Shown: positions 13,066 through 30,642 of the stretch, one piece after another | Position numbering within the stretch: position 1 is the first letter of the stretch | How the letters are laid out: each line of letters starts with the position of its first letter | Origin: Rhodobacter sp. | GTDB taxonomy: Bacteria > Pseudomonadota > Alphaproteobacteria > Rhodobacterales > Rhodobacteraceae | Length of the DNA: 40,306 nucleotides | Reading direction: 5' to 3' | NCBI GenBank assembly: GCA_020250175.1 | Contig: JADCEN010000080.1 | Coordinates: 1 to 40,306 of the forward strand | The notes under the pieces: model-generated | What the model saw: the letters and a program-made list of their open reading frames with translations, nothing else | What the model was told of the DNA's origin: nothing | Database searches by the model: none | Position numbers and translations under genes: made by a program

Positions 13066-14013
13066 ATGACCGCCTTGAGACTGATCCTTGCCGCCGCAAC
13101 TGCGCTTTGCACCTGCGTCCCTGCCTTTGCGGGCGAACAGCCGAACCTGTTGATCGTCAGCGAGGATGCTGACCAAGACACGATCCCCCGCAATTCGCGA
13201 ATCTTCAACCGCGTCGAGCGCGCGATTGCAAGCGAAATGCAGGCCAAGGGCTTTCGCGTCTACGACGAGACGGCGGTGAGCATGGACATCACCGACCCGC
13301 ATCGTACCCGTCGCAACGATGCGGAACTGATCAGCGTCGCCCGTCGGGTGTCCGCGCCGATCGACGCAATCACGGTGTTCCAGATCTACGCCTCGACCGA
13401 GAAGAATCAGTATGCCGACATCGTCGATCTGCGGGTGCGCATCGACGGACGAATTCTTGAGGTCGCCAACGGCACCTTCCTGGGCGCCTATGAGGTGAGC
13501 TATGGCCCGGGCGATCTGCCGCCCCTGCCGGTCAACTGCGACCGCGATTGCGTGCTTGAACACGTCGGTGACCAGGCGCGCCGGGTGGCGGCCGATGTCG
13601 GCGCGGAACTGGCGGCGCGGCTCGACGCGATCTCGCCAGTTGCAACTGCGGGCAGTGTCAATGCCGGCGCGGCGGGCGCGGTGCCGGAGGCGGTTCAGAC
13701 CGTCACCCTGGCCGCACCGGCAGCAGAGTGCGACGGGCTGACCCAGGCCTATACGCTGCAGTTCCGCGGGTTCGAGCCGTCCGAACTGACCCGGATCGAG
13801 GAGTATCTGGTGTCGTTCAAGGGCTACGACCATCACCGGCCGCTGCGGACGGATACGGTGCAGTCGGACTACTGGTACGAGACCTGCTCAGACGCGGCGC
13901 GGCTTAACCGCAATCTGCGGCTGATGACCGAGATCATGGACACCGACGCGCGGGTCGCGGTGACCGCCCAGCGGATCGAAATCGAAAAGCGGCGGGTGCC
14001 GGTGGAGCGCTGA
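13066..14013 (+). CDS. Exported protein of unknown family, paralogue A1
   Basis: 315 residues with a clear signal peptide (about 1-22, cleavage after AFA). The N-terminal domain begins PNLLIVSEDADQDTIPRNSR and includes a conserved FRVYDETA block. The C-terminal domain after about residue 220 is separated by an Ala/Val-rich linker. Paired cysteines (CDRDC, AECD, YETC) suggest disulphides in the periplasm. The protein at 23324-24235 is an evident paralogue across its whole length. ACAGGAG lies just upstream of the ATG. It stands immediately before a WD40-caspase gene, as its paralogue does, so the pair probably works together. I cannot assign a known family; a secreted binding or carrier role is a guess only. 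Confidence 0.85.
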   Translation: MTALRLILAAATALCTCVPAFAGEQPNLLIVSEDADQDTIPRNSRIFNRVERAIASEMQAKGFRVYDETAVSMDITDPHRTRRNDAELISVARRVSAPIDAITVFQIYASTEKNQYADIVDLRVRIDGRILEVANGTFLGAYEVSYGPGDLPPLPVNCDRDCVLEHVGDQARRVAADVGAELAARLDAISPVATAGSVNAGAAGAVPEAVQTVTLAAPAAECDGLTQAYTLQFRGFEPSELTRIEEYLVSFKGYDHHRPLRTDTVQSDYWYETCSDAARLNRNLRLMTEIMDTDARVAVTAQRIEIEKRRVPVER

Positions 14014-14026
14014 TCCCAAACGATTG

Positions 14027-14055
14027 AAAAAGGGCCGGGTCTTCCGGCCCTTTTC
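14027..14055 (+). terminator. Hairpin between A1 and WD40-caspase 1
   Basis: AAAAAGGGCCGG, a 5-base loop, then CCGGCCCTTTTCC forms a strong stem followed by T residues. It would end or attenuate transcription after the A1 gene, so the following WD40-caspase may be expressed at a different level or from its own promoter. Confidence 0.65.
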
Positions 14056-14116
14056 CTTGCCCGGAAGGCCGACCTCGGCCATCCTCGCGCTGAACCCAAC
14101 CTTCCGGAGCTTGCCC

Positions 14117-16816
14117 ATGCTGCGTTTGCTGCCTGTCCTGTTTGCACTGGCGTTAGCGACGGCGCTGAACGCCCAGTCCGCCCCGCCGACGCTGTTCGAG
14201 GGGCATGTTGGCCCGGTAAGTGCTGCGGCCTATGCGCCGGATGGACGCATGATCCTGACCGGCGGCGATGACGGCACCGCCCGACTGTGGGATGCTGAGA
14301 CGGGACAGGAGATCAGGCGCTTCACCGGGCATCGGGGCAGCGTCACCTCCGTCGCCTTCAGTCCGGACGGTCGGCAGGTGCTGACCGGGAGCGGGGACGA
14401 CACCGCCCGGCTTTGGGACACCGCGACGGGGCAGGAGTTCCGGTCCTTTACCGGGCATGGCAGTTCGGTCCTCTCCGTTGCCTTCAGCCCGGACGGTCGG
14501 CAGGTGCTGACCGGGAGCGGGGACGAAACCGCCCGGCTGTGGGACGCCGCGACGGGGCGGGAAATCCGGTCCTTCACCGGGCACAAGCTTGAGGTCGCCT
14601 CCGTCGCCTTTAGTCCGGACGGGCGGCAGGTGCTGACCGGGAGCTGGGACTACACCGCCCGGCTGTGGGACTCCGCGACGGGGCAGGAGATCCGGTCCTT
14701 CACCGGGCATGAGAGCGCGGTCTATTCTGTCGCCTTCAGCCCGGACGGGCGGCAGGTGCTGACCGGGAGCCTGGACCACACCGCCCGACTGTGGGACGCC
14801 GCGACAGGCCGGGAAATCCGGCGCTTCACCGGGCGTGAGTCCACCATGCATGAGTACTCGGTCTCCTCCGTCGCCTTCAGCCCGGACGGGCGGCAGGTGC
14901 TGACCGGGAACTGGGACGCCATCGCCCGGCTGTGGGACGCCGCGACGGGGCAGGAGATCCGGTCCTTCACCGGGCATGGGGAAGGGGTCATGTCCGTCGC
15001 CTTCAGCCCGGACGGGCGGCAGGTGCTGACCCAGAGCCGTGACACCACCGCCCGGCTGTGGGACGCCGCGACGGGGCGGGAGATACGGTCCTTCACCGGG
15101 CATGGGGGGTGGGTCTTCTCCGTCGCCTTCAGCCCGGACGGGCGGCAGGTGCTGACCGGGAGCTTGGACAAGACCGCTCGGCTGTGGGACGCCGCGACGG
15201 GGCGGGAGATACGGTCCTTCACCGGGCATGGGGGGTGGGTCACCTCCGTCGCTTTCAGCCCCGACGGGCGGCAGGTGCTGACCGGGAGCTTCGACAAGAC
15301 CGCCCGTCTGTGGGACGCCGCGACGGGGCAGGAGATCCGGTCCTTCACCGGGCATGGGGGAAGAGTCACCGCCGTCGCCTTCAACCCGGACGACAGTCGG
15401 CAGGTGCTGACCGGGAGTGAAGACCACACCGCGCGGCTGTGGGACGCTGCGTCGGGGACGGAGGTCCGATCCTTCACCGGGCATGGGCGTGAGGTCATGT
15501 CCGTCGCCTTCAGCCCGGACGGGCGGCAGGTGCTGACCGGGAGCGGCGACGCCACCGCCCGGCTGTGGGACGCCGCGACGGGGCAGGAGATACGGTCCTT
15601 CACAGGGCATGAGAGCGCGGTCTATTCTGTCGCCGTCAGCCCGGACGGGCGGCAGGTGCTGACCGGGAGCTCTGACACCACCGCCCGGCTTTGGGACGTC
15701 GCGACGAGGCGAGAGATCGGGTCCTTCACCGGGCATGGGGGTGAGGTCATCTCCGTCGTCTTCAGCCCGGACGGGCGGCAGGTGCTGACCGGGAGTGTGG
15801 ACGCCACCGCCCGGCTGTGGGACACAGCGACGGGACGGGAACTGGCAACCTTGCCGCATTTCCTCTTTGTCCTAGGCGTCGCTTTCGCACCCGACGGTCG
15901 CGCCGTTCTGACGGGCGGCATCGACGGCATAGCCCGGCTCTGGCCGCTTGACCGCGCGTTCTGGCCCCAGCAGCGGTTCACGGCCGAGCCGCGCCCGCGC
16001 GCGCTGGCCCTGATCATCGGCAACCGCACCTATACCCGGGGCGCGCCCGAGGTCGCCTATGCCCATAACGACGCCGATGCCTTTTACACCCTGTTCACCG
16101 AGGTGATGGGCCTTGACCCGCAGAAGGTGATCCTGCGCAAGGAGGTGGGGTCGGTCGAGTTCCAGGAGCTGTTCGGATCGGACCAGGTGCCGGGCCTGCT
16201 CGACAGCCTCGCCGAGTTCGTGGACGAGATCTTTGTCGTCTATATCGGCCATGGCGCACCGGGTTTCGACCGCGACGGCACGCCGATCCCCTATGTGCTG
16301 CCGGTAGACGTGTCCGGCGCCAACCCGGCGCTTGGAGGCATGGCCCTGTCCGACCTTAAGGACCGGTTGAAGGCGCTGCAGGTGCCGCAAGTGACGCTGA
16401 TCCTCGATGCCTGTTTCTCGGGTCTGTCGCACGCAGGTCCGGTGGTTCCGCAGGCTTCGCCGATTGGCGTCGGCTTTGCCGAACCTTTGGTCACGGCCAA
16501 CCTGACTGTGATGAGCGCAACTGCTTTTGAAGAGCCGCAATATGCCAGTTGGCTGGATGCCGAAAAGCACAGTGCGCTGAGCTATTCTGTTCTTCGCGGG
16601 CTTTATGGCGAGGCTGATGAAACAGGCGACGCAGACGGTCGGGTAACCATCCGGGAGCTGGAGGACTATGTTCGCGAACAGGTGACCTTCTCTGTCCTGT
16701 CGCGGCTTCAGCGGCGGCAGTCGCCGTATCTCAGCCATTCCGGCGAGAACTTCACGATGGTCGATTTCAGCCGGTCCGAAAGCCGACCTGCGTTCCCCGT
16801 GGCAGGTGCAGAATGA
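14117..16816 (+). CDS. Exported WD40 (14 repeats)-caspase-like protease 1
   Basis: 899 residues. A signal peptide (MLRLLPVLFALALATALNAQ) precedes 14 WD40 repeats, mostly 42 residues with the core SVAFSPDGRQVLTGS and TARLWD. Fourteen repeats equal two seven-bladed propellers. The C-terminal peptidase C14 domain starts at LALIIGNRTY and has catalytic His712 (YIGHG) and Cys766 (LDACFSG), so it is likely active. Repeats are nearly identical in DNA; most differences fall at the three residues after GH, one before SVAF, and the two flanking D in TGSxDx. ATG 14117 was chosen over 14024 because GGAG is 7 bp upstream and the signal peptide begins there. The last four bases (ATGA) overlap a possible start of the next gene. 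Substrates and ligand are unknown. Confidence 0.92.
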   Translation: MLRLLPVLFALALATALNAQSAPPTLFEGHVGPVSAAAYAPDGRMILTGGDDGTARLWDAETGQEIRRFTGHRGSVTSVAFSPDGRQVLTGSGDDTARLWDTATGQEFRSFTGHGSSVLSVAFSPDGRQVLTGSGDETARLWDAATGREIRSFTGHKLEVASVAFSPDGRQVLTGSWDYTARLWDSATGQEIRSFTGHESAVYSVAFSPDGRQVLTGSLDHTARLWDAATGREIRRFTGRESTMHEYSVSSVAFSPDGRQVLTGNWDAIARLWDAATGQEIRSFTGHGEGVMSVAFSPDGRQVLTQSRDTTARLWDAATGREIRSFTGHGGWVFSVAFSPDGRQVLTGSLDKTARLWDAATGREIRSFTGHGGWVTSVAFSPDGRQVLTGSFDKTARLWDAATGQEIRSFTGHGGRVTAVAFNPDDSRQVLTGSEDHTARLWDAASGTEVRSFTGHGREVMSVAFSPDGRQVLTGSGDATARLWDAATGQEIRSFTGHESAVYSVAVSPDGRQVLTGSSDTTARLWDVATRREIGSFTGHGGEVISVVFSPDGRQVLTGSVDATARLWDTATGRELATLPHFLFVLGVAFAPDGRAVLTGGIDGIARLWPLDRAFWPQQRFTAEPRPRALALIIGNRTYTRGAPEVAYAHNDADAFYTLFTEVMGLDPQKVILRKEVGSVEFQELFGSDQVPGLLDSLAEFVDEIFVVYIGHGAPGFDRDGTPIPYVLPVDVSGANPALGGMALSDLKDRLKALQVPQVTLILDACFSGLSHAGPVVPQASPIGVGFAEPLVTANLTVMSATAFEEPQYASWLDAEKHSALSYSVLRGLYGEADETGDADGRVTIRELEDYVREQVTFSVLSRLQRRQSPYLSHSGENFTMVDFSRSESRPAFPVAGAE

Positions 16817-16869
16817 TCCCGGTGAGCCGATTGCAAGGTCGGCAGCGAAGCAATTTGGGAGAATCGGAC

Positions 16870-19083
16870 ATGGGTAAGGTCAACCCGGCCCGCAAGTTCA
16901 GGCAATCATGCGGAAACCGGCACATGTGGTGCGCTTTGCGTCAGGTATGGGCGGTGCTGTTTCTTGCGTCGATCCTGGGCGCTGCCGGCGGCCATCCCGC
17001 TGTGGCGCAGGCCGGAAGGGACGACGTCCTTGTGCTGGCGATCGGGAATACGCGGTACAAGACAGACGGGCGCAGCGATGCGCCGGACGTACCCTATGCG
17101 GGCAAGGACGCACTGGCGTTTTCTGAACTCTGGACGGAATTCTACGGACTCGCCAGCGATCAGGTCGTGGTCCGCGAGGACGTTACGCTGTCAAACCTCA
17201 GGGCGCTGTTCGGTACGGCCGGATCGCCTGATGGACAGTTGCACAAATCCGTGCCGCGTTCGGTACGGACAGTGATCGTCTTCTTCTCGGGTCATGGGGT
17301 TCCGGGCAGGATCACTTCGCAGGGCGAGGTTCGGAGCCAGCCATTTCTGCTGCCGGTTGACGGCACCGCGGCAGAACCGGAGCAGACCGCCTATCCGCTG
17401 CAAGAGCTGGTCGCGGCGCTGGGGCGGCTGCAGGTGGACAATGTGATCCTGGTGCTTGACGCTTGCTTCACCGGGCTGACACCGGCACCGGAGGCGACGA
17501 TGGTCGAGGGGAGTTCGGCCAGCTTCGGGATGGCCTTCGCTGCAGTGGAGAAGCCGCCCAAAGTCTCGATACTGTCTGCCACAAGCCGGGAGGGCAACCA
17601 GATCGCCAACTGGCTGGACGAGCGTCAGCACGGGGCCTTCACGTGGCACCTGCTTGAGGGGTTGCGCGGAGCGGCCGACCGCGACCGCGACCGCGACCTC
17701 ACGCTCCAGGAGCTTTTCATCTATGTCGGCGACCGGCTGTCGGTTGGCAATCTTCAGCAACCGCTGGGGCGGGCGCAGAACCCCAACCTCGATCCGCCGC
17801 AGGCCGACCTGCTGCTGGCTGTGCTGCCGGAGAAGACGCCGGGCAGCGACGGCGTTCTGACCGTCAAGCCGGACGGCAGCGGCGAATTCCGCACCATCGC
17901 GGAGGCCGTCACGGCGGCCAAAGCGGGCGACCGTGTGGAAATCCATCCCGGGCGATACCTGGGCGGCGTGGTCGTGGACAAAGCGATCGAGATCGTCGGG
18001 ATCGGCAAACGCGAGGATATCCTGTGGGAGGCCAAGACCGAGGATGTGATCATGTGGACGGCAGGCTCTGGCCGTATCGCGAACCTGACCATGCGCCAGA
18101 TCGGTGTTTCTGGCGACGAGAATTTTGGTGCCGTTGATTTTCAGGGGGGATCGGCCATCGTTGAAGGAAATGATCTGACCTCTTCGGACGGGGCCATCAT
18201 CTATATCGGAATGACCGGCGCCGACCCCGTCGTGCGGGGCAACACGCTGCGGGACGGGAAGGATGCCGGCATCCACGTTTACGACAACGGCAAGGGCCGT
18301 ATTGAGGAGAACCAGATCTTCGGCAATGATAGCGCCGGGATCGGGATCGGGACCGGTGCCGACCCTGTCGTGCGGGGCAACACGCTGCGGGACGGGAAGC
18401 AGGCCGGCATCCTCGTTTACGACAACGGCAAGGGCCGCATCGAGGAGAACCAGATCTTCGGCAATGCCTTCGCCGGGATCGAGATCAAGACCGGTGCCGA
18501 CCCCATCGTCCGGGGCAACACGCTTCGGGACGGGAAGGAAGTCGGCATCTTCGTTTACGACAGCGGCAAGGGCCGCATTGAGGAGAACCAGATCTTCGGC
18601 AATGCCTTGGCCGGGATTGAAATCACGACCGGCGCCGACCCCATCGTCCGGGGCAACATTGTGCGGGACGGGAAGCAAGGCGGAATCTTCGTTAATGACA
18701 ACGGCAAAGGCCGCATTGAGGAGAACCAGATCTTCGGCAATGCCTTTGCCGGGATTGAAATCACGACCGGCGCCGACCCCATCGTCCGGGGCAACATTGT
18801 GCGGGACGGGAAGCAAGGCGGAATCTTCGTTTACGACAGCGGCAAGGGCCGCATTGAGGAGAACCAGATCTTCGGCAATGCCTTGGCCGGGATCGCGATC
18901 AAGACCGGTGCCGACCCCGTCGTGCGGGGCAACAGGGTTACCACGAACAAGCAGGCAGGTATCTGGATCTATGACGGCGGCCAAGGCGAGATCGTCGGCA
19001 ATGACCTGCGCGGCAACAGCGGCAAGGCGCTCGACATCGACAGCACCGCAGGCACGGTCACAGCGCGCGATAACCAGCAGTGA
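16870..19083 (+). CDS. Exported caspase-like protease fused to a beta-helix
   Basis: About 737 residues. A hydrophobic N-terminal segment (RQVWAVLFLASILGAAGG, ending AVAQA) predicts export. The caspase domain begins at VLVLAIGNTRY, with His142 (FFSGHG) and Cys199 (LDACFTG). After about residue 335 comes a right-handed parallel beta-helix of the pectate-lyase/NosD type, opening with a DGSGEFRTIAEAV box and containing five tandem 46-residue units plus a divergent sixth. ATG 16870 has GGGAG nine bases upstream; ATG 16813 (overlapping the previous stop) and 16924 are alternatives. A beta-helix would suit binding of polysaccharide or another extended surface; the ligand is unknown. It follows WD40-caspase 1 closely and is probably co-transcribed. 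Confidence 0.9.
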   Translation: MGKVNPARKFRQSCGNRHMWCALRQVWAVLFLASILGAAGGHPAVAQAGRDDVLVLAIGNTRYKTDGRSDAPDVPYAGKDALAFSELWTEFYGLASDQVVVREDVTLSNLRALFGTAGSPDGQLHKSVPRSVRTVIVFFSGHGVPGRITSQGEVRSQPFLLPVDGTAAEPEQTAYPLQELVAALGRLQVDNVILVLDACFTGLTPAPEATMVEGSSASFGMAFAAVEKPPKVSILSATSREGNQIANWLDERQHGAFTWHLLEGLRGAADRDRDRDLTLQELFIYVGDRLSVGNLQQPLGRAQNPNLDPPQADLLLAVLPEKTPGSDGVLTVKPDGSGEFRTIAEAVTAAKAGDRVEIHPGRYLGGVVVDKAIEIVGIGKREDILWEAKTEDVIMWTAGSGRIANLTMRQIGVSGDENFGAVDFQGGSAIVEGNDLTSSDGAIIYIGMTGADPVVRGNTLRDGKDAGIHVYDNGKGRIEENQIFGNDSAGIGIGTGADPVVRGNTLRDGKQAGILVYDNGKGRIEENQIFGNAFAGIEIKTGADPIVRGNTLRDGKEVGIFVYDSGKGRIEENQIFGNALAGIEITTGADPIVRGNIVRDGKQGGIFVNDNGKGRIEENQIFGNAFAGIEITTGADPIVRGNIVRDGKQGGIFVYDSGKGRIEENQIFGNALAGIAIKTGADPVVRGNRVTTNKQAGIWIYDGGQGEIVGNDLRGNSGKALDIDSTAGTVTARDNQQ
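18214..18930 (+). repeat. Five near-identical 138-bp tandem repeats in the beta-helix gene
   Basis: Units begin at 18214, 18352, 18490, 18628 and 18766, each exactly 138 bp (46 codons), with a partial, diverged sixth from 18904. The protein unit runs from TGADPVVRGN through VYDNGKGRIEENQIFGN to AGI. Differences are clustered at a few codons (after RDGK, before VYD, and around AGI). Units 4 and 5 are nearly the same, pointing to recent duplication or gene conversion. Confidence 0.95.
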
Positions 19084-19153
19084 TCATCGCGGTCGTTGCC
19101 GTTTCAGCAGGCATCGCCTACCGTGCCCCGGTGCAATCGGGGTAGAGGGGTGC

Positions 19154-20590
19154 ATGTCGCGACAGATCGAAGGTGCACTTGCACAAAGCGCACAGATACT
19201 GCTCGATTTTGAGGCGGTCAGCGAGGAACATGGCCTTGGCCGGGAAGAGCGCATGAAGCTCGCGCTGATCCTAGTCGGCTCAGACCGGCGGAACACATCG
19301 CTTTGGCGGCTGGCTACTCAACTGCGCAACGTGAGTATGACGGCAGGCGGATATGGCAGCTTCGATCCGCTGATCGAGGTCGTTCTGCGGCAAAAGGTCC
19401 GCATCGGCCGCATCGAAGCGGCGCTGTTCAGCTTTCTGCTCGGCATGGATTCCTACGCGCACTTTACCGCCGTCGCCGCCGCCTGTGATCCACTGCTTTC
19501 GCTTCAGGGGAAGGAAGAAGTCCTGATCAGGGACGCCACCAATGCGATGGCGCGTGCGCTGGACGCCTATCGCCGGGAGCATTTGCCGCTGGACAACATG
19601 CGCCAGAGCTTCACCGAGATCCGGCGCTACCTCGACACAAAGGACGGCGCGGCAGGCTATCCCGGACCGGGGGATGCCCTGTGCTTCTGGCAGCGGCACG
19701 GATCGAGAGAGACCGGGCGGTGGATCGAATATTCCACCTGCCTCAGCGGCATGATGAACTTCCTTCAGGACTACGAAGCGCAATCCAGCGCGGCCTCCGG
19801 CAAATCAATGTCGGAAAACCCGGATTTGTACGAAGGTGAAGGCACAACCATCGCAGCGCGCCTTGCCAGCGCACCGGAAGACGTCGAAGATGCCTTTCGG
19901 TTGCCGGATTTACTGTATCCACTGACTCCCGGCGGCGGTTTCGAAGCTGTTATCGAGGCATTGACCGAGATCGAAACCGCCGAGACGGCTGCATTTCTGA
20001 AAGTGCAGATCGAATTGCTGGCGAAGCTTGCGCGCTATGGCCGCTTCGCCCTTATCTGGCCGCAAGACGTTCTGATCGATCTGGCCTTTTCCGGCTGTCA
20101 GCAGAAGGTCATCCAGAACCTTCGCGACCTGAACCGGGCAAGACGGAACGGCGATACCAATCTGGCGGAGCGCGCCCTCATGGGCATTCGGGAGGGCCTC
20201 GCCTGCTCGACCGCGCCGACATATGAAGAGGTGGTGGATCGGCTGGACGGCGCAGTGCGCCATGCGAGCGATGTCTATCAATGGCTTCTTTGCAACAGGC
20301 ACCCGGTCGACCCTGGGAATACCCCTGAACCCTCCATAATCCATTCAGAGGTAAGCAGGAGACTCGCTCCGATGTGGAAAAGAAAAGGGTTTGCCGACAT
20401 GGATGAGGCCGACATCCGCGCAGAGCTTTCGAAGCTGGAAACGCCTCTGGACAAAGTCGTCCCGAGGCTGGGCGCAATTGCACGGGCGTTGCGAAGTCAG
20501 GTTGGCAAAGGCTGCGAAGGCCGGTTTCAGCAAAACCGGGTCAATTTCGCGTCAAAGCTTGACGTCCTTTACGGTCAGGAGAACCGCTAG
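19154..20590 (+). CDS. Conserved-looking protein of unknown function, 478 aa
   Basis: A soluble, largely helical protein starting MSRQIEGALAQSAQILLDFE, with no signal peptide or membrane segment, hence probably cytoplasmic. I recognise no catalytic motif or family. AGAGGGG lies just before the ATG, and the frame runs through to TAG at 20588-20590, directly abutting the ATG of the next gene, which implies translational coupling. The same frame is open upstream to 18263 only because it overlaps the 138-bp repeats; that part is not coding. Its position between exported proteases and a membrane protein makes it a candidate cytoplasmic partner of the system. Confidence 0.8.
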   Translation: MSRQIEGALAQSAQILLDFEAVSEEHGLGREERMKLALILVGSDRRNTSLWRLATQLRNVSMTAGGYGSFDPLIEVVLRQKVRIGRIEAALFSFLLGMDSYAHFTAVAAACDPLLSLQGKEEVLIRDATNAMARALDAYRREHLPLDNMRQSFTEIRRYLDTKDGAAGYPGPGDALCFWQRHGSRETGRWIEYSTCLSGMMNFLQDYEAQSSAASGKSMSENPDLYEGEGTTIAARLASAPEDVEDAFRLPDLLYPLTPGGGFEAVIEALTEIETAETAAFLKVQIELLAKLARYGRFALIWPQDVLIDLAFSGCQQKVIQNLRDLNRARRNGDTNLAERALMGIREGLACSTAPTYEEVVDRLDGAVRHASDVYQWLLCNRHPVDPGNTPEPSIIHSEVSRRLAPMWKRKGFADMDEADIRAELSKLETPLDKVVPRLGAIARALRSQVGKGCEGRFQQNRVNFASKLDVLYGQENR

Positions 20591-23323: not shown

Positions 23324-24235
23324 ATGATGCGCTGCCGACTTCTGAACTTGGTTCTTGCCGCGATGCTTACCCTGGTGCCGGTCGCGGTCGCGGCCGATCA
23401 GCCGACAATACTGATCATGGGCGAAGACGCCGACACGGACAGCGTTCCTCGCAATTCGCGGATATTCACGCGTGTTGTCGCGGCCCTGCAAGAGCAGATT
23501 CAGGTTCGGGGCTTCAAGGTCTATGACGAGACCGCCCTGTCCAAGGACATTACCGACCCCGGCAAGGTGCGCCGCACCGATGCCGAGCTGCTGACGCTGG
23601 CGGAACGTCTTGGCCCGCCACCGATTGATGTCGTGCTGGCGTTTCAGATCTTTGCCGCGGCCGACGCCGCCAACGCGCTGGGCATCTCTGATCTCCGGAT
23701 TCGCGTGTCGGGTCGGATGCTCAATGTGGCGACCGGCGAGGCGCTGGGGAATTACGAGGTTGCCTACAGTCCGGGCGAGCTTCCGCCGCTGCCGGCGCAA
23801 TGCGACCGCGACTGTGTGATCGAGCGGGTCGGTGGTGAGGCCCGGCGCATCGCGGCCGATCTGGGTGCGGTGCTGGCCATCCGTCTTGACCAGCTTTCGC
23901 CGGTCGCAAACAGCGCCGATCTTGAACAGGGCTATGGCAGCAAGGCGGCCTGCCCGGGGTTGACGACGGCCTATGAGGTGTCGCTGCGCGGCTTTGACAA
24001 TGCCGAGATGAACCAGATCAACGAGCATCTGATCAGCTTCTCGGGCTACAAGGCGCATCGGCCGCTGCGGTCGGACAGCGTGCAGACCGATTACTGGTAC
24101 GAAACCTGCGGCGACTTTGCCCGGCTGATGCAGAACCTGCGCCTGATGGCCGAAATCATGAGTGTCGAGGTGCGGGTCGCATCGATCGGCAACCGGCTTG
24201 AGGTGGAGCGGCTGGGGCCAGTGGAAGACCGCTGA
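23324..24235 (+). CDS. Exported protein of unknown family, paralogue A2
   Basis: 303 residues, signal peptide ending AVAADQ. It aligns along its full length with the protein at 13066-14013: EDADTDSVPRNSRIF, FKVYDETALSKDITDP, GELPPLPAQCDRDC, and the C-terminal SDSVQTDYWYETCGDFARL. Cysteine positions are the same; the linker between the two domains is shorter. AGGAG sits just before the ATG. It precedes WD40-caspase 2 by 38 bp, exactly the arrangement of A1 with WD40-caspase 1, so the two-gene module was duplicated. No known family recognised. Confidence 0.85.
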   Translation: MMRCRLLNLVLAAMLTLVPVAVAADQPTILIMGEDADTDSVPRNSRIFTRVVAALQEQIQVRGFKVYDETALSKDITDPGKVRRTDAELLTLAERLGPPPIDVVLAFQIFAAADAANALGISDLRIRVSGRMLNVATGEALGNYEVAYSPGELPPLPAQCDRDCVIERVGGEARRIAADLGAVLAIRLDQLSPVANSADLEQGYGSKAACPGLTTAYEVSLRGFDNAEMNQINEHLISFSGYKAHRPLRSDSVQTDYWYETCGDFARLMQNLRLMAEIMSVEVRVASIGNRLEVERLGPVEDR

Positions 24236-24273
24236 GCGGCGCGATCAAACCCGGCGGAAAAGGGAGACAGGCC

Positions 24274-26169
24274 ATGGCCGCACTTTCACGACATCGTTCC
24301 AATGCCGCCTTGGGAACGGGCCTTGTCGCTTTGGTGGCGATCCTGGCGCTGTGGCTCCTCTCCGTCCTTTCCGCTGGCGCGCAGGAGATCCGATCCTTCA
24401 CCGGGCATGGGGACGGGGTCAACTCCGTCGCCTTCAGCCCGGACGGGCGGCAAGTGCTGACCGGGAGCTTTGACGACACCGCCCGGCTGTGGGACACCGC
24501 GACGGGGTGGCAGATCCGGTCCTTCACCGGGCATGGGGGATGGGTCTATTCTGTCGCCTTCAGCCCGGACAGGCGGCAGGTACTGACCGGGAGCCTGGAC
24601 GCCACCGCCCGGCTGTGGGACGCAGCGACGGGGCGGGAGATCCGGTCCTTCACCGGGCATGAGTACTCGGTCAACTCCGTGGCCTTCAGCCCGGACGGGC
24701 GGCAGGTGCTGACCGGGAGCGAAGACAACACCGCCCGGCTGTGGGAAACCGCGACGGGGCGGGAGATTCGGTCCTTCACTGGGCATGAGAGAGGCGTCAA
24801 CTCCGTCGCCTTCAGCCCGAACGGGCAACAGGTCCTGACCGGGAGCGGTGATTACACCGCCCGGCTGTGGGACACCGCGACGGGGCGGGAGATCCGGTCC
24901 TTCACCGGGCATGGGGGCTCGGTCTTCTCCGTCGCCTTCAGCCCGAACGGGCAACAGGTTCTGACAGGGAGCAGTGATGACAACGCCCGGCTGTGGGACG
25001 CAGCGACAGGGGCGGAGGTACGGAGCTTCACCGGGCATGGGGACGCGTTCCTCTCTGCGGTCTCCTCCGTCGCCTTCAGCCCGGACGGGCGGCAGGTGCT
25101 GACCGGGAACTGGGACGACACCGCCCGGCTGTGGGAGACCGAGACGGGGCAGGAGATCCGGTCCTTCACCGGGCATAGGGGATGGGTGAAATCCGTCGCC
25201 TTCAGCCCCGACGGGCGGCAGGTGCTGACCGGGAGCTTGGACAAGACCGCCCGGCTGTGGGCGATCCCTGAAGATCTGTTGCCCAGCGCGGCACTCCCTG
25301 ACCCTGTGGCAACCGCGGCTCCGGTCATCCCAGTTCCACCGGCCCCGATCCTGATTCAGCCGCGGACCGACGTGCTGGCACTGATCATCGGCAACCAGCG
25401 CTATCAGGCCGGGGTGCCGGAAGTGGATTTCGCCGACCGCGATGCCGAGGCGATGCGCCGCCTGCTGGTCGAGCGACTCGGCTTTCCATCCGCCAATGTC
25501 CGCGTACTGTCCGACATGACGCTCAGCCAGATGCAGCAATGGTTCGGCACGGCCGAGGTGCCGCGCGGCATCCTGCACGATGTCATCCCCTCGAACATCC
25601 GCGAACTGCTGATCTTCTATTCCGGTCATGGCGTGCCAGGCCCCGGATCGGGGCTCGCCCCGTCACCGTTCCTGTTGCCGGTCGACGGACTGCCGGGGCG
25701 GCCCGAGTTGACCGCCTACCCGCTGAAGACGCTGCTGAGCAACCTTGCCGGTGTTCCGGTCGAGCGTGTTTTCGTCTTCCTCGACGCCTGTTTCACCGGG
25801 GCAACTCCGGCTGGAACGCTGCAGACCGCGACTTCCGGCGCCTTCGCCGTCGGCGTCGCCCTGCCCGAAATCCCGGCCAAGATTTTCGTTCTGTCAGCCA
25901 CCGGCTCGGAAGAAGCGGGGCGGGCGCAAATGGCGCATTGGCTGACCGAAGAGAAGCACGGGGCATTCACCTGGTATCTGATGGCGGCGATGGACGGCGC
26001 GGCCGACAACAACGGCGATGCGACGATAACCATGGCCGAACTGCACGCCTTTGTGCAGGACGCCCTGCGCAGCGCGGCGTTCTCGGGCCGCATCGGACCG
26101 CAGACCCCGACGCCGGAGGGCCTGCGTGACGAGGACCCGGTTGTCGTCCGGCTGGTTGGAGACCAATGA
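24274..26169 (+). CDS. Exported WD40 (7 repeats)-caspase-like protease 2
   Basis: 631 residues. An N-terminal hydrophobic segment (about 13-35, LVALVAILALWLLSVLSAGA) works as signal peptide or anchor. Seven 42-46-residue WD40 repeats make one complete propeller. The caspase domain starts at LALIIGNQRYQ, with His452 (YSGHGVPG) and Cys506 (LDACFTG). The sixth repeat has a four-residue insertion (GDAFLSAVSSVAF), similar to the sixth repeat of protease 1. The gene converges on the minus-strand protease 3 with only 13 bp between stop codons. The repeat DNA is almost the same as in the other two WD40-caspase genes, evidence of concerted evolution. Confidence 0.92.
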   Translation: MAALSRHRSNAALGTGLVALVAILALWLLSVLSAGAQEIRSFTGHGDGVNSVAFSPDGRQVLTGSFDDTARLWDTATGWQIRSFTGHGGWVYSVAFSPDRRQVLTGSLDATARLWDAATGREIRSFTGHEYSVNSVAFSPDGRQVLTGSEDNTARLWETATGREIRSFTGHERGVNSVAFSPNGQQVLTGSGDYTARLWDTATGREIRSFTGHGGSVFSVAFSPNGQQVLTGSSDDNARLWDAATGAEVRSFTGHGDAFLSAVSSVAFSPDGRQVLTGNWDDTARLWETETGQEIRSFTGHRGWVKSVAFSPDGRQVLTGSLDKTARLWAIPEDLLPSAALPDPVATAAPVIPVPPAPILIQPRTDVLALIIGNQRYQAGVPEVDFADRDAEAMRRLLVERLGFPSANVRVLSDMTLSQMQQWFGTAEVPRGILHDVIPSNIRELLIFYSGHGVPGPGSGLAPSPFLLPVDGLPGRPELTAYPLKTLLSNLAGVPVERVFVFLDACFTGATPAGTLQTATSGAFAVGVALPEIPAKIFVLSATGSEEAGRAQMAHWLTEEKHGAFTWYLMAAMDGAADNNGDATITMAELHAFVQDALRSAAFSGRIGPQTPTPEGLRDEDPVVVRLVGDQ

Positions 26170-26182
26170 TGCGGGGACGTCC

Positions 26183-27991
26183 CTACGGCAAATCCGCGAC
26201 CAAGACGCGGTCCGCGCCCGGCGGCCGGAGTGAAGGCGTCTGCTCACGGTCCTCGCGCCGCAGGACGTCGCGGAAGACGCGGTCACCAACATAGTCATGC
26301 AGTTCCGACATCAGCAGGGTGCCGTCCTTGTCGAGGTCCGCCTCGCCGTTCAGACCATTCAGCACATGCCACGTAAAGACGCCGTGCTGGTTCGCGACAT
26401 CCCAGTGGGCGTATTGCGGCTGATCGAAGGCGGTGGCGGCAAGGACAAAGACCTGGGCGCGTGTTTCGGGGCTGGCCACGGCGACGCCAATGCTGGCCGA
26501 AACGCTTTCGGGCTGCAGGGGGCCGGCGGCGGACAGGCCCGAAAAGCAGGTGTCGAGGAAGACAGTGACCCGCGCAACCGGCAGCGTCCCGAGCTGGTTG
26601 ATGAGCTGCGACAGGGAGTAGCCGCCAAAGGCAGGCTCTTCGGGCCTGACGTCGACCGGCAGGAGAAAGCCCTCGGCAAGGCCGTCAGGGCGCAGCAGGG
26701 GCACACCATGGCCGGAATATGCGATGAAAACCTCGTCATAAAGCCCGGCCAGCCGATAAAGACGCCCCTGCGGCGCCTCCACCGTCCCGAACAGGCGCTG
26801 CAGGTCAAGGGAATTGGCATTCTCCAGAACGAACAGGTTCTCGGGGGCGATCCCCAGCGTCTGACCGAAGGCGGTCGCATAGGCCTGCGCATCCCGCAGC
26901 GCAAAGTCGACATCCGGGGCGTGGTCATAGCTGCCGTTGCCGATGACGATGCCGAGGACGTTCGGGCGCATCGGATGTGCCGGCCTTGGCACCGGGTCAG
27001 GTGGCATCGGGTCCGGAGCCAGATCGAAGGTGACGACGCGCACCATTGCGGGCCCGCTGTCGGCTGCTGGCAGATAGATAGCCGCGGCCAACTGCCGCCC
27101 GTCCGGGCTGAAGGCGACGCAGAAAATCCAGTCCCCATACCCGGTGAAGCTTCGGATTTCTTGACCCGTCGCTGCGTCCCATAGCCGGGCGGTGTCGTCC
27201 GCGCTCCCGGTCAGCACCTGCTGCCCGTCCCGGCTGAAGGCGACGGAGGTGACTATATCCCCATGCCCGGTGAACGACCAAATCTGTTGCCCCGTCGCGG
27301 TGTCCCACAGACGGGCGGTGGTGTCAAAGCTCCCGGTCAGCACCTGCCGCCCGTCCGGGCTGAAGGCGACGGAGGTGACTAGTCCCCCATTCCTTCCCCT
27401 ATGCCCGATGAAGGACCGGATCTCCTGCCCAGTCGCGGTGTCCCACAGCCGGGCGGTGGCGTCCCAGCTCCCAGTCAGCACCTGCCGCCCGTCCGGGCTG
27501 AAGGCGACGGAGGTGACGCGGCTCAAATGCCCGGTGAAGGACCGGATCTCCCGCCCCGTTGCTACGTCCCACAACCGGGCGGTGCGGTCCCCGCTCCCGG
27601 TCAGCACCTGCTTCTCTTCCGGTCTGAAGGCGACGGAGAAGACGTGGCCCCCATGCCCAGTGAAGGACCGAATCTCCCGCCCCGTCGCGGTGTCCCACAG
27701 CCGGGCGGTGTCGTCAGTACTCCCGGTCAGCACCTGCCGACCGTCCCGGCTGAAGGCGACAGACATGACGGTGCTCTCATGCCCGGTGAAGGACCGGATC
27801 TCCTGCCCCGTCGCGGTGTCCCACAGCCGGGCAGTGGCGTCCCTGCTCCCGGTCAGCACCTGCCGCCCGTCCGGGCTGAAGGCGAAGGAGTCGATGATCC
27901 CCGCCTGTTCGACCAGCACTCGATCAGCGACCGCCCCCGTGCCGGACAGGCACCAGCACACAACCGCAAGCATCAGCTTGAAATGTCGCAT
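26183..27991 (-). CDS. Exported WD40 (7 repeats)-caspase-like protease 3
   Basis: 602 residues. A signal peptide (MRHFKLMLAVVCWCLSGTGA) leads into seven WD40 repeats; the seventh is divergent (SFTGYGDWIFCVAFSPDGRQ, then a non-WD end). The caspase domain begins at VLGIVIGNGSYDH, with His428 (YSGHGVP) and Cys482 (LDTCFSG). ATG 27991 is preferred to 28024 because an AAGGGAG motif precedes it and the signal peptide begins there. It is 29 bp downstream of the DUF4384-like gene on the same strand, so the two form an operon. Its repeat block lies in inverted orientation relative to proteases 1 and 2. Confidence 0.92.
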   Translation of the reverse strand: MRHFKLMLAVVCWCLSGTGAVADRVLVEQAGIIDSFAFSPDGRQVLTGSRDATARLWDTATGQEIRSFTGHESTVMSVAFSRDGRQVLTGSTDDTARLWDTATGREIRSFTGHGGHVFSVAFRPEEKQVLTGSGDRTARLWDVATGREIRSFTGHLSRVTSVAFSPDGRQVLTGSWDATARLWDTATGQEIRSFIGHRGRNGGLVTSVAFSPDGRQVLTGSFDTTARLWDTATGQQIWSFTGHGDIVTSVAFSRDGQQVLTGSADDTARLWDAATGQEIRSFTGYGDWIFCVAFSPDGRQLAAAIYLPAADSGPAMVRVVTFDLAPDPMPPDPVPRPAHPMRPNVLGIVIGNGSYDHAPDVDFALRDAQAYATAFGQTLGIAPENLFVLENANSLDLQRLFGTVEAPQGRLYRLAGLYDEVFIAYSGHGVPLLRPDGLAEGFLLPVDVRPEEPAFGGYSLSQLINQLGTLPVARVTVFLDTCFSGLSAAGPLQPESVSASIGVAVASPETRAQVFVLAATAFDQPQYAHWDVANQHGVFTWHVLNGLNGEADLDKDGTLLMSELHDYVGDRVFRDVLRREDREQTPSLRPPGADRVLVADLP

Positions 27992-28020
27992 CTCTCTCTC
28001 CCTTGGCCATTCAGCGCGTG

Positions 28021-29502
28021 TCAATCCAGCCGGAACTGACGCATGCCATCAGAGGTTACAATCGTCACCACGGCCTCGGCACTGGCACGCGGATTGGAGC
28101 CTTGCAGCAGGTTTCCCAACGTCCGCGCATCGCCGGTCGGCAAGCGTTTCCCGCTCCAATCGGTCAGCCTCTTGAGCAGGGTCGCGTCGAGCTGCCGATA
28201 AAGCAAGCATCCGATCAGCGTCGGCGCGGGCGGGCCATAGGCGTACAAGACCGGCGGGCCCCTGGCAGGATCGACCGCTTGCAGATCCTGGGGGACTGAT
28301 ACCTTCTGCCTCGATTCCAGCCGCAGCGGCCTGTACAGGTCATTTGGGACCAGCAGCGAGAACGCAAGATCGTCGCCGAGCGCGAAGCACAACAGATCGC
28401 CAGCCTCGTCGGCCTCGATCGTCAGGCTGATCAGATCGCAGCGCCGGACCCTTTCGGGGGACGTGTCTTCGCAAATCTCGTAGATCGGCATGGCACCGCC
28501 GGCCACCTCCATCCGGAGCCACGCCGGGCTGTTACCGCCAAGAAGCGCGCGCACCGCAGAAAAGCCGCCGCCGCCGCCAAGTGCCCCGGGGTCGAGCGCG
28601 TCGCGAATGCTGGCGGGCAATCTCAGGATGGTGATGTCCACGATCTGCGACGCAAGACCCACGTCGCCCTCGCTGAGGTTCAGCACCAGCCGGGTGCGCT
28701 CCCGGTCGATCCGCCAGATCTGACCTGTCAACGCGATGCCGCCCAGCGCCTGGGTCTGCCGCAGAAGCTTCGGCGGCGACGCGTCGTTGATCGCCGCCGT
28801 CAGAGTGTTGGCAGCCTCCAGCCAGGCCTCTGCGACCATCGGGGAAAAGTAGCTCCCGGCCTCCACGTTCGGGATACCGGTCGACCCATCGGTAAAGGGC
28901 AGCATCACGATCTCCGGCCGCGCCTGAGGCGCGGCCTCCAGCAGCTTTGCAACCGCTGCAGCGATCCCGCCCTCAGGGTCGGCCGCCAGATTGTCGGGTG
29001 CGTCGATCGGAACTGCCTGCGTTTTGGCGAGCACCTCGCCGGTTCGCATCGACACCAGCGCCAGTTCAAGTGTCAGGTTGCCGCCCGAAAGACCGGCCGT
29101 CCCGATCAGGGCAAAATGCGCACTTTGCCGCACCAGATCGGACACCGCGTTTGTCCAGCCATCGAGACCTTCCCGGATCAGAATGTCTTCCAGCGCCCGC
29201 CGCACCTCGGTATTGGCGGCCTGCACATTTGGCTTTTGCGGCAGCAGTTCCGCGAAGCGCAGGGCCACCCGTGTCATGGTCGCCTCGAGCGTGGCAGAGC
29301 CGAAGGGGCTGGCATTCGCGGCCGGCGATACCAGAACGATGAGGTCGCCGGATCTGATCGCCTGTTGGGCGCTGTCTGTGAAGAGTTGCCGGGCGAGATC
29401 CTCTTCGCCGGCAGTGTCAGCAAAGGCAGGCACGCAGAGCGCAAGACAGAGTGCGACGGCCGCGATGCGAAGCTTCTTCAGTTTCTTCAGAAGAGCGAAC
29501 AT
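28021..29502 (-). CDS. Exported DUF4384-like protein
   Basis: 493 residues with a signal peptide (about 1-28, ending CVPAFA). The middle part resembles CsgG/FlgO-type periplasmic domains (PEIVMLPFTDGSTG). The C-terminal part around LISLTIEADEAGDLLCFAL, SLLVPNDLYRPLRLESRQ and VSVPQ resembles DUF4384, a beta-sandwich domain often coded beside or fused to bacterial caspase-like proteases. ATG 29502 has AGGA about nine bases upstream and starts the signal peptide; an upstream start at 29553 would add an unlikely leader. It is the first gene of an operon with WD40-caspase 3. The DUF4384 match is by pattern memory, hence moderate confidence in the name but high that it is a gene. Confidence 0.8.
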   Translation of the reverse strand: MFALLKKLKKLRIAAVALCLALCVPAFADTAGEEDLARQLFTDSAQQAIRSGDLIVLVSPAANASPFGSATLEATMTRVALRFAELLPQKPNVQAANTEVRRALEDILIREGLDGWTNAVSDLVRQSAHFALIGTAGLSGGNLTLELALVSMRTGEVLAKTQAVPIDAPDNLAADPEGGIAAAVAKLLEAAPQARPEIVMLPFTDGSTGIPNVEAGSYFSPMVAEAWLEAANTLTAAINDASPPKLLRQTQALGGIALTGQIWRIDRERTRLVLNLSEGDVGLASQIVDITILRLPASIRDALDPGALGGGGGFSAVRALLGGNSPAWLRMEVAGGAMPIYEICEDTSPERVRRCDLISLTIEADEAGDLLCFALGDDLAFSLLVPNDLYRPLRLESRQKVSVPQDLQAVDPARGPPVLYAYGPPAPTLIGCLLYRQLDATLLKRLTDWSGKRLPTGDARTLGNLLQGSNPRASAEAVVTIVTSDGMRQFRLD

Positions 29503-29530
29503 GATGATATTCCTGTGTCGAAGGTAAAAG

Positions 29531-30252
29531 TCATTGGCGCGTGAACGCTGCAACCAGCGCGTTGCCGCTGCCGCGCGACGAACACCTCGTCGGCAAAGCT
29601 GGCGCGGTTGTGGATATCGCTCTCGGGGACCGGTTCGGTGCCGAACGGCTGCGCCATACGGACTGAAATTGCGTCGTGAACCTCGGGCACGTTTTCTGGC
29701 AGCAACCCCAGCACGTCGCGGTACCAGTCCGCCATTGCCGTGGCATCCCGGTCGGCGAAGCGGACCTCTGGCGCATGGACATAGTTCTTGTTGCCGAAGA
29801 CCACGGCCAGCACGTTCGACCGCGGCACACCCATGCGCCGCTCGACACTTTCTGCAGGCGGGGCGACGCTCTGCGGGGCCGACGCGGTGCCAACCGGGTT
29901 GGACCAGATCCGCACGGTTCCGTCATTGCTCGCCCTTGCGATCAGGCGACTGTCCGGGCTTAAGGCGACGCCCCGGATATTGTCCGCATGCCCGTCGAAT
30001 CGCCACAGCTGCTCTGCAGTCTCCTTATCCGACAGACGGGCGGCGTGGTCCGAGCTCCCGGTCAGCACCGACCGCCCGTCCAGGCTGAAGGCGACGGAGC
30101 GAACCGAGTTCTTGTGTCCGACAAGCACTTTCAGCAAATCCGGCACCCCGCTTCAGCAAATCCGGCACCCCGTGTGCAGTCGGCGTGACGAATTTCGCCA
30201 ATCCCAGAACAACCTGCCGCAGCCGCCACGAAATCTTCGCAACCCCGATCAT
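29531..30252 (-). pseudogene. Broken WD40-caspase 4
   Basis: The 5' part (ATG 30252, MIGVAKISWRLRQVVLGL...GVPDLLK) is followed by a tandem duplication of 21 identical bases with period 22 (30130-30150 and 30152-30172). This shifts the frame; removing one copy rejoins the two open frames exactly. After it come two WD40 repeats (GHKNSVRSVAFSLDGRS; GHADNIRGVALSPDS) and the first half of a caspase domain (VLAVVFGNKNYVHAPEV). The protein ends in unrelated codons straight after DEVFV, just where the catalytic YSGHG would stand, so His and Cys are both missing. A GAGGA before ATG 30252 and a 9-bp gap show it was coupled to the gene at 30642. It is clearly inactive as a protease. Confidence 0.85.
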
Positions 30253-30261
30253 CCATCGTCC

Positions 30262-30642
30262 TCATTCAATTCCCCCGGACAGAATCTCCGATCCGGAGGC
30301 CTTAGTGTAGTGAAGGCGGGGCTTTTCGCCAATCATCTGCTCGCCGCACTCCGGTGCGAAAGCATAGAAAATGGCCGCGAGGATAGCCAAGCAAACAGCC
30401 GTCCCCATAGCACCGCTGGTGCCGACGCAACCCAACTGCGCGATGTAGCCGCTTTGGCTACGGCGGGCACGATTGAATTCGGAGTCGGGATGGGTCATCT
30501 CCATCTTGTATTCGTACGCCAAGCGGCGGTGAGTTTCGGCCCAGTTTCTGGCATGCGACGAACTGCCGACCATCGCGGCCGCAACAACCGGGGCCGCCAC
30601 GGCACGGCACGCAGCGCGGTGAGAGAGTTTGGTCGTGATCAT
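30262..30642 (-). CDS. Small membrane protein of unknown function
   Basis: 126 residues starting MITTKLSHRAACRAVAAPVV. GGAGGAG lies eight bases before ATG 30642, a strong ribosome binding site that favours this start over 30666. Residues about 10-28 are Ala/Val-rich and weakly hydrophobic, and a clear transmembrane helix lies at about 86-104 (AMGTAVCLAILAAIFYAFA). No family recognised. The gene is followed after 9 bp by the broken WD40-caspase 4, mirroring the partner-protease gene order of the other three modules. Confidence 0.65.
   Translation of the reverse strand: MITTKLSHRAACRAVAAPVVAAAMVGSSSHARNWAETHRRLAYEYKMEMTHPDSEFNRARRSQSGYIAQLGCVGTSGAMGTAVCLAILAAIFYAFAPECGEQMIGEKPRLHYTKASGSEILSGGIE

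What the first reader, a model, noticed from the sequence alone, without database searches (positions are those of the whole stretch)
13066..30642. An exported multi-caspase locus built from partner + WD40-caspase modules
Seen: three intact WD40-caspase genes, one broken one and one caspase-beta-helix gene, the intact ones with export signals and all with His and Cys of the C14 dyad. Each WD40-caspase is preceded on its own strand by a different partner: A1, A2 (paralogues with signal peptides), a DUF4384-like exported protein, and a small membrane protein. An OmpA-like anchor, a single-pass membrane protein and two cytoplasmic-type proteins lie in the middle. Known: prokaryotic caspase-like proteins with repeat domains are common in conflict systems, but mostly cytoplasmic. 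Inference: a periplasmic or surface recognition-protease system of a kind I do not recognise as described.
Basis: partly seen in the sequence, partly recalled or inferred. Interest (0 to 1): 0.88.

Follow-up and report, generated by a model that had tools for sequence, protein, structure and literature searches.

The report
Envelope protease system with variable receptors
This stretch of a bacterial genome carries a conserved but apparently undescribed set of genes whose proteins probably sit in the cell envelope, where caspase-type enzymes fused to fast-changing recognition domains may guard against intruders, somewhat as immune receptors do in fungi and animals.

Summary
In detail: three intact WD40-caspase genes, one truncated copy and one caspase-beta-helix gene lie at 13066-30666, with catalytic His and Cys in the intact ones and export-type N-termini. 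It is not a chance assembly. The A1 protein recurs in 45 further loci, nearly all in Alpha- and Gammaproteobacteria, often beside OmpA, a DUF4384-like protein, an adjacent gene trio (here B-C-D) and a caspase, trypsin or subtilase. A1 and D co-occur in 13 of 385 alphaproteobacterial genomes (19 each; Fisher p about 1e-15), within 10 kb in 10 of the 13.

A1 has a CsgG/FlgT/TolB-N-type fold. D has a Lon-like domain with an invariant Ser-Lys pair, a membrane helix and a predicted periplasmic domain. The window's A1, B, C and D match no family in Pfam, NCBIfam or PADLOC.

The WD40 blades vary most at the four positions under diversifying selection in fungal allorecognition receptors (pN/pS 1.43 against 0.57 elsewhere) and are homogenised between the three genes.

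Best reading: an envelope-spanning surveillance system in which variable receptors trigger exported proteases and D carries the signal across the inner membrane. Architecture, linkage and variability are shown; localisation, trigger and defence role are inferred.

The parts
13066..14013 (+). A1: exported protein of the A1 family, CsgG/FlgT/TolB-N-type fold, two invariant cysteines (C158, C162)
14024..16816 (+). WD40-caspase 1, 13-14 near-identical blades then C14 domain (GHG / DACFSG); probable start ATG 14117
14255..15834 (+). 126-bp WD40 repeat array of caspase 1
16813..19083 (+). exported caspase with C-terminal right-handed beta-helix; 138-bp repeats (90% matches) at 18213-18934
19154..20590 (+). 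B: predicted cytoplasmic, no known family; first gene of the B-C-D trio
20591..21127 (+). C: predicted cytoplasmic, no known family
21137..22315 (+). D: Lon-like domain (Ser80, Lys134), one membrane helix (about 200-225), C-terminal beta domain with two conserved cysteines
22356..23162 (+). OmpA-domain protein (probable peptidoglycan anchor), probable start 22533
23324..24235 (+). A2: second A1-family protein
24274..26169 (+). WD40-caspase 2 (7 blades; array 24384-25261)
26183..28024 (-). WD40-caspase 3 (array 27092-27890; GHG / DTCFSG), convergent with caspase 2; probable start at 27991
28021..29553 (-). exported DUF4384-like protein
29487..30146 (-). truncated WD40-caspase 4, ends before the catalytic motifs
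30262..30666 (-). small partner of caspase 4; homologue (51% over 114 residues) at the same place in Fertoeibacter niger

Best explanation
A conserved, patchily distributed, envelope-spanning surveillance and protease system of Proteobacteria. Shown by sequence: a recurring set of A1-family protein, OmpA-domain protein, DUF4384-like protein, the adjacent trio B-C-D, and one or more exchangeable proteases. Inferred working: OmpA fixes the complex to peptidoglycan; the A1-family proteins, with a CsgG/FlgT/TolB-N-type fold, scaffold it near the outer membrane; exported caspases (with a trypsin in some relatives) carry interchangeable repeat domains (WD40, beta-helix, Sel1) as receptors. In this genome the WD40 face is being diversified, as in fungal allorecognition receptors. 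Binding of a foreign protein that enters the envelope would trigger proteolysis there, and D would carry the event across the inner membrane to its Lon-like Ser-Lys domain and to B and C, ending in killing or arrest of the intruder or of the cell. The steps from trigger onward are inference.
For: Linkage: 45 further loci; over window + 45 loci own-HMM hits are OmpA 38, DUF4384-like 32, caspase 27, trypsin 19, B, C and D 19 each of 46 (three of the 46 match by construction), B-C-D in the same 19 loci, always neighbouring and in order. A1 and D in the same 385 genomes: 19 and 19, both 13, Fisher p 1.3e-15, 1.7e-14 without the window's genome; 10 of the 13 have them within 10 kb. Caspases in 13 of 19 A1-positive against 75 of 366 other genomes. 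Of 33 cluster caspases, 21 lie in one branch (SH-aLRT 100) that holds 1 of 20 other caspases. Folds. Ser and Lys of D in 34 of 34 rows that hold the domain, 3 of them repeats. Receptor diversification: the four most variable sites 11, 13, 29, 31 flank invariant V12 and near-invariant D30, the same spacing as codons 7, 9, 25, 27 in Podospora (PMC1805685, passages); pN/pS 1.43 (bootstrap 1.26-1.64) against 0.57. Context: upstream here an HKD-SNF2 helicase and a type IIG enzyme; in F. niger a DUF1156 methyltransferase over NCBI's anti-phage cut-off and a PLD-helicase just under it (1082 against 1100 bits) with a PADLOC match; a similar gene row on a mobilizable Methylobacterium plasmid.
Against: No localisation, activity or phage data. 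In Pelagimonas (L009) and Actibacterium (L010) the flanks look metabolic, not defensive; flanks of the other loci were not scanned. The repeat-diversification signal is limited to some members: entropy ratio 4.7-6.0 in the window genes, 3.7 in F. niger caspase 1, 3.9 in one MAG, but 1.6-1.8 in six Roseobacteraceae WD40-caspases of the same cluster. In F. niger pN/pS at the four sites is only 0.98. In 17 of 46 loci neither caspase nor trypsin was found, some because of short contigs. Gammaproteobacterial loci have no detected caspase; examples carry kinase, phosphatase and transglycosylase genes, which could point to envelope physiology. A1-only and D-only genomes exist (6 of 385 each). Both dyad motifs were matched in 26 of 33 cluster caspase rows by a simple pattern; the other 7 were not examined further.
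Confidence: 0.45

Rival explanations
1. Envelope maintenance or stress response: a Tol-Pal-like or RseP/DegS-like regulated proteolysis system that senses misassembled outer-membrane proteins or wall damage; the repeats bind self proteins.
For: OmpA and TolB-N/FlgT-type folds; SLT transglycosylase, Ser/Thr kinase with FGE domain, PP2C and FHA genes in gammaproteobacterial loci; metabolic-looking flanks in two genomes.
Against: Patchy distribution (4 of 295 genomes of the family, one of them a weak match, and none in the other genome of the window's genus in that draw; 19 of 385 of the class), a plasmid copy, and receptor faces with pN/pS above 1 in this genome do not fit housekeeping well.
Confidence: 0.25
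2. Allorecognition or kin discrimination: the variable WD40 arrays recognise envelope proteins of neighbouring cells and kill non-self, rather than phage.
For: Same four variable positions and inter-gene homogenisation as the fungal het-d/het-e family.
Against: The same pattern is expected of any receptor with changing targets; no contact-delivery gene was recognised among the cluster proteins scanned.
Confidence: 0.15
3. Processing or secretion of exported substrates: the proteases mature partner proteins (A1, DUF4384-like) that build a surface structure.
For: CsgG and PelC, to which A1's fold is similar, are parts of outer-membrane export machines (names from the entries); each WD40-caspase follows a different partner gene.
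Against: No pilus, curli or exopolysaccharide gene was recognised among the cluster proteins scanned; diversifying receptors would be unexpected.
Confidence: 0.1
4. No system: unrelated genes brought together in an island, with recent duplication explaining the near-identical repeats.
For: The window is one 40-kb contig with integrase-like and primase-like genes towards its ends.
Against: Synteny with F. niger and co-occurrence over 385 genomes; catalytic regions of the paralogues are only 37-44% identical, so the repeats are homogenised, not young duplicates of whole genes.
Confidence: 0.03

Closest known systems
EACC1-caspase system ('System 4', Kaur et al. 2020, PMC7159879; that section read)
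   Same: Membrane-associated; a protein with one membrane helix and extensions on both sides next to a caspase gene with interchangeable fused domains.
   Different: No EACC1 match in D; caspase 2 scores 72 bits against the EACC1-caspase model's cut-off of 140; here the caspases look exported and the set has A1, OmpA, B and C as well.
VMAP / iSTAND MoxR-vWA ternary conflict systems (PMC7159879, passages)
   Same: Caspase and trypsin peptidases; iSTAND systems also use OmpA and Sel1 domains next to membrane helices.
   Different: No MoxR ATPase, vWA or STAND hit, and no other NTPase, among the ten window cluster proteins scanned with Pfam.
DGR-diversified conflict systems with predicted periplasmic or secreted sensors (PMC10907252, passages)
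   Same: Diversifying sensors, some predicted outside the cytoplasm, near caspase or trypsin effectors; one locus has an S8 peptidase with WD40 repeats.
   Different: There diversity comes from diversity-generating retroelements acting on C-type lectin domains next to MoxR or STAND proteins; here from repeat homogenisation and selection on WD40 faces. A reverse transcriptase was not searched for here.
Canu caspase-nuclease loci (PMC12799240, passages)
   Same: Caspase as triggered protease in defence islands.
   Different: No MBL-type pro-nuclease among the ten window proteins scanned; the word stem 'periplasm' does not occur in that paper's main text.
Fungal NWD/HNWD allorecognition receptors het-d, het-e (PMC1805685, passages)
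   Same: Near-identical WD40 repeats, concerted evolution between genes, diversification at four sites with identical spacing.
   Different: The fungal proteins carry a NACHT NTPase (and HET domain in het-d/het-e); here the repeats are joined directly to export-type caspases.
Tol-Pal (recalled; TolB and Pal)
   Same: TolB-N-type fold, beta-propeller, OmpA-type domain.
   Different: The propeller is a WD40 on a caspase, not on the TolB-N-like protein; A1's fold match ties with unrelated anticodon-binding folds.
CalpL, type III CRISPR protease with SAVED domain (PMC11417357, search listing and start of abstract; Lon domain and function recalled)
   Same: Lon-type peptidase used as a switch outside protein quality control.
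   Different: No SAVED hit in D; D has a domain beyond a membrane helix.

Membership tests
Caspase homologues, peptidase C14 (PF00656) | C14 domain over the curated cut-off | tested here: met
   Three of the four intact proteins over cut-off; the fourth groups with them in a tree.
Caspase homologues, peptidase C14 (PF00656) | His-Cys catalytic dyad | tested here: met
   GHG and D[AT]CF motifs in all four intact window proteins; absent from the truncated one.
EACC1-caspase system (System 4) | EACC1 protein encoded next to the caspase | tested here: inconclusive
   No EACC1 hit for D or for any of 19 D proteins at E<=0.1; whether the Pfam copy holds an EACC1 model was not checked.
EACC1-caspase system (System 4) | EACC1-associated caspase subfamily (NF047832, cut-off 140 bits) | tested here: not met
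   Caspase 2: 72.4 bits; the other window caspases were not scanned with NCBIfam.
VMAP ternary systems | MoxR ATPase and vWA protein in the locus | tested here: inconclusive
   No such Pfam hit shown for the ten window proteins scanned (the WD40-caspase lists are cut at 25 rows); not every ORF of the window was scanned.
Canu | Caspase-activated MBL-type nuclease gene | tested here: inconclusive
   No such Pfam hit shown for the ten window proteins scanned.
Lon-type (S16) peptidase, D | Lon proteolytic-domain fold | tested here: met
Lon-type (S16) peptidase, D | Ser-Lys catalytic pair | tested here: inconclusive
   Ser80 and Lys134 in 34 of 34 N-domain rows, 3 of them repeats of earlier rows; equivalence to the Lon pair rests on motif order and a weak profile alignment of the TG-Lys part (probability 10.6). 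Activity not tested.
CsgG/FlgT/TolB-N fold, A1 | Fold match | tested here: met
HNWD-like diversifying WD40 receptor | Diversification at the four face positions with conserved framework | tested here: met
   pN/pS 1.43 against 0.57 in the window genes; F. niger only 0.98 against 0.40.
HNWD-like diversifying WD40 receptor | Concerted evolution between loci | tested here: met
   Window: framework codon identity 0.636-0.683 between paralogues, 0.456-0.556 between orthologues. Not clear in F. niger (paralogues 0.351-0.533).
HNWD receptor family | NACHT NTPase next to the WD40 domain | tested here: not met
   The translations show WD40 blades leading directly into the caspase domain.
Anti-phage defence system | Protection against phage | not testable with these tools
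   Needs an experiment.

The most novel reading that the evidence does not exclude
An armed counterpart of Tol-Pal: an innate immune complex in the bacterial envelope without a recognised NTPase, in which a TolB-N-like scaffold, a wall-anchored OmpA protein and exported caspases with fungal-receptor-like WD40 domains, whose blades are exchanged between genes, detect foreign envelope-crossing proteins, and a Lon-type Ser-Lys peptidase in the inner membrane relays the alarm to the cytoplasm. It would be an extracytoplasmic caspase immune cascade with a diversifying receptor repertoire, which I did not find described.
Probability: 0.22. Interest if true: 0.93.

Novelty: categorically new. Interest (0 to 1): 0.8.

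Why it matters
The caspase systems in the passages read here are built around NTPases, nucleases or a small membrane sensor. This one appears to place caspases, and in relatives trypsins and subtilases, outside the inner membrane, together with partner proteins that have no family in the libraries searched, and it adds a receptor-diversification pattern known from fungal self/non-self recognition. If it is an immune system, it would show that the periplasm has its own proteolytic immunity and would give a direct test of how WD40-repeat homogenisation generates recognition repertoires in bacteria.

Tried and rejected
Chance neighbourhood: rejected by synteny and co-occurrence. Membership in named defence systems: the window's A1, B, C, D and DUF4384-like protein had no PADLOC hit at E<=0.1, no NCBIfam hit at E<=0.001 and no Pfam hit near a cut-off; PHROGs was not searched. 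Sequence search of solved structures gave nothing usable for A1, B or D. Phage origin: no A1 relative in phage records or in viral contigs; no near-identical plasmid copy. MotA/ExbB- and ExbD-like identity of two small membrane proteins in gammaproteobacterial loci was suspected from reading but has no Pfam support, so it is not used. DUF4136 and chagasin-inhibitor hits (E 0.13 and 0.081) were taken as chance. Foldseek's own top rows for D were mostly cadherin, PKD, Ig-like and other beta folds at E 2.4e-3 or worse, probably matching its C-terminal part (aligned range not shown). No structure was predicted for B or C (both jobs went to A1 and D). 'Undescribed' means: not found.
Full report
Observation. 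The window is the whole of one contig (G000:C79) of a 3.89-Mb, 99.96% complete genome. Pfam gives WD40, C14, beta-helix and OmpA domains. The four intact caspases have the GHG and D[AT]CF motifs. The fourth WD40-caspase is cut off before both motifs. Export-type N-termini are visible by eye for A1, A2, the four intact caspases, OmpA and the DUF4384-like protein. Across the 46 loci a hydrophobic 12-mer in the first 95 residues is found in 52 of 61 A1-family, 27 of 36 caspase, 43 of 53 OmpA, 27 of 34 DUF4384-like and 11 of 19 trypsin proteins, against 5 of 19 B, 0 of 19 C and 4 of 19 D. This is a crude test: starts were taken mechanically.

Conserved linkage. In 295 genomes of the family, A1 matches occur in 4, the window's own included and one weak. 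Two of the relatives, read gene by gene, showed the cluster at once: Pelagimonas has DUF4384-like, OmpA, A1, caspase, trypsin, OmpA, WD40-caspase, DUF4384-like; Actibacterium has caspase-Sel1, DUF4384-like, B, C, D, trypsin, OmpA, A1. B, C, A1 and the DUF4384-like protein match the window's significantly; D is 36% identical to the Actibacterium one. A pattern scan of the species-genome collection with four A1-family rows gave 45 loci in Alphaproteobacteria, Gammaproteobacteria, one MAG labelled only Pseudomonadota and one labelled Marinimicrobia.

Over the window plus these 45 loci, own profile models found OmpA in 38, DUF4384-like in 32, caspase in 27, trypsin in 19 and B, C, D in 19 each of 46; after removal of overlapping frames the counts are 35, 32, 25, 18 and 17-19. 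B-C-D are the same 19 loci, always neighbours on one strand and in the same order, mostly with overlapping or nearly touching ends. The immediate upstream neighbour of the main A1 gene is OmpA in 25 of 46; the downstream neighbour is a caspase in 10 of 46. Many loci are cut by contig ends, so these are lower bounds; 17 of 46 show neither caspase nor trypsin.

Control on an even draw of 385 alphaproteobacterial genomes (same number and, by the handles, the same draw in three searches): A1 family 19, D 19, both 13; Fisher p 1.3e-15, or 1.7e-14 without the window's genome. In 10 of the 13 the two lie within 10 kb on one contig; in two they are on different contigs, in one about 0.4 Mb apart. Caspases occur in 88 of 385: 13 of 19 A1-positive genomes against 75 of 366 others, and 12 of the 13 with both A1 and D. 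Relatedness between genomes is not corrected for. In 44 genomes reached through the loci, 39 have a caspase; three Methylobacterium genomes have exactly one, inside or at the edge of this locus.

A tree of 53 caspase domains (33 from the clusters, 20 picked elsewhere in the same genomes) has one branch, SH-aLRT 100, with 21 cluster rows and 1 other; the other 12 cluster rows fall in other parts, and strongly supported branches force at least three changes of the label. So there is a caspase lineage largely proper to this system, with further recruitment of others. In the eight gammaproteobacterial loci no caspase was detected and trypsin in two; examples there carry subtilase, transglycosylase, Ser/Thr kinase with FGE domain, PP2C and an FHA-containing A1 relative.

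Fertoeibacter niger (Paracoccaceae) has the same layout: A1 91%, B 85%, C 91%, D 78%, OmpA 83%, A2 91%, DUF4384-like 63%, small protein 51% identity, its own WD40-caspases 1-3, and a fourth split over two frames. The part behind the second caspase differs (no beta-helix in that frame; a beta-helix-like piece lies in another short frame), which suggests module exchange or decay. The upstream flanks differ: here an integrase-like gene, HKD-SNF2 helicase and type IIG enzyme, there a DUF1156 methyltransferase over NCBI's anti-phage cut-off and a PLD-helicase at 1082 bits against a cut-off of 1100, with a PADLOC match. Pelagimonas and Actibacterium flanks are not of this kind; the other loci were not scanned for it. 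On a mobilizable plasmid of Methylobacterium aquaticum a row of genes annotated caspase, hypotheticals, serine protease and OmpA has the order and sizes of the cluster; only D was matched by sequence (38% over 29% of the query).

Receptor diversification. The WD40 arrays are 126-bp tandem repeats. In 23 blades of the three genes the most variable positions are 13, 29, 11 and 31 (different residues in 88-91% of pairs), around V12 (invariant) and D30 (near-invariant). In the Podospora NWD family the strongly selected codons are 7, 9, 25 and 27, around conserved 8 and 26 (PMC1805685, passages): the same spacing. By the Nei-Gojobori count pN/pS is 1.43 (bootstrap 5-95% 1.26-1.64) at these four and 0.57 (0.39-0.75) at the framework of 27 blades; in F. 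niger 0.98 (0.87-1.23) and 0.40 (0.34-0.48) for 31 blades. With only four codons and high divergence there, pS is poorly estimated. These positions face outward in WD40 proteins generally, so position alone proves little; the control is that six Roseobacteraceae WD40-caspases (three genera) from the same cluster show an entropy ratio of only 1.6-1.8, against 4.7-6.0 in the window genes, 3.7 in F. niger caspase 1 and 3.9 in one MAG.

Framework codons of blades are more alike between the three paralogues of the window (0.636-0.683) than between orthologues in the two species (0.553, 0.456, 0.556), although catalytic regions are 37-44% identical between paralogues and 79-91% between orthologues. 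That is the mark of concerted evolution between loci in this genome; in F. niger it is not clear (paralogues 0.351-0.533).

Interpretation. Shown: a conserved gene set, partner folds, an invariant Ser-Lys pair in D, and receptor-like diversification of WD40 faces in some members. Inferred: that A1, OmpA, the DUF4384-like protein and the proteases work together in the periplasm; that D links them to B and C; that the target is foreign. The rival of envelope maintenance is weakened by patchy occurrence, a plasmid copy and diversification, but the gammaproteobacterial gene content keeps it alive.

Comparison. The nearest published design is the EACC1-caspase system (PMC7159879, section read): it shares a single-helix protein beside a caspase with variable fused domains, but no EACC1 hit was found and caspase 2 stays below the EACC1-type cut-off. 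iSTAND systems use OmpA and Sel1 domains, Canu uses a caspase-activated nuclease, and DGR-diversified sensors predicted to be periplasmic or secreted have been proposed in multicellular bacteria (PMC10907252, passages). The 2012 survey recorded WD40 in 10.9% of 671 metacaspases, possible signal peptides, and OmpA in 14 of 217 operons (PMC3501461). 'Categorically new' refers to the gene set and its inferred envelope architecture; the function is unproven.

The Ser-Lys membership row was lowered to inconclusive.

Noticed in passing
window 1795-10168: HKD-SNF2 helicase, type IIG restriction-methylation enzyme and a third protein without a PADLOC or NCBIfam hit form a likely restriction-type operon next to an integrase-like gene (judged by eye) at 471-1766.
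   Followed up: partly
window 33062-35506 (-) and 36698-37801 (+): A primase-like protein (below the cut-off of the P4-family model) and an integrase-like gene (judged by eye) suggest a mobile element at the right end of the contig.
   Followed up: partly
L050, L051, L043, L047: Gammaproteobacterial A1-family loci carry Ser/Thr kinase with FGE-sulfatase domain, PP2C, FHA-A1 fusion, subtilase and transglycosylase genes plus small membrane proteins of unknown family, recalling (from memory) the regulators of type VI secretion.
   Followed up: partly
L016:491-4242: Three exported-looking paralogues beside B-C-D resemble ClpP/SppA-type serine peptidases by eye; one was scanned and has no such Pfam hit.
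   Followed up: partly
L090:10289-12114: The fourth WD40-caspase of F. niger is split over two overlapping frames while its GHG and DACFSG motifs are present; the window's copy is truncated differently.
   Followed up: no
window 18213-18934: The beta-helix of the second caspase is also made of near-identical 138-bp repeats (90% matches), so it may be a second diversifying receptor module.
   Followed up: no
L020:10863-14378 and relatives: Caspase with weak DUF1349/DUF1583 matches (below or near their cut-offs) behind it, a further possible receptor type in the same cluster.
   Followed up: no
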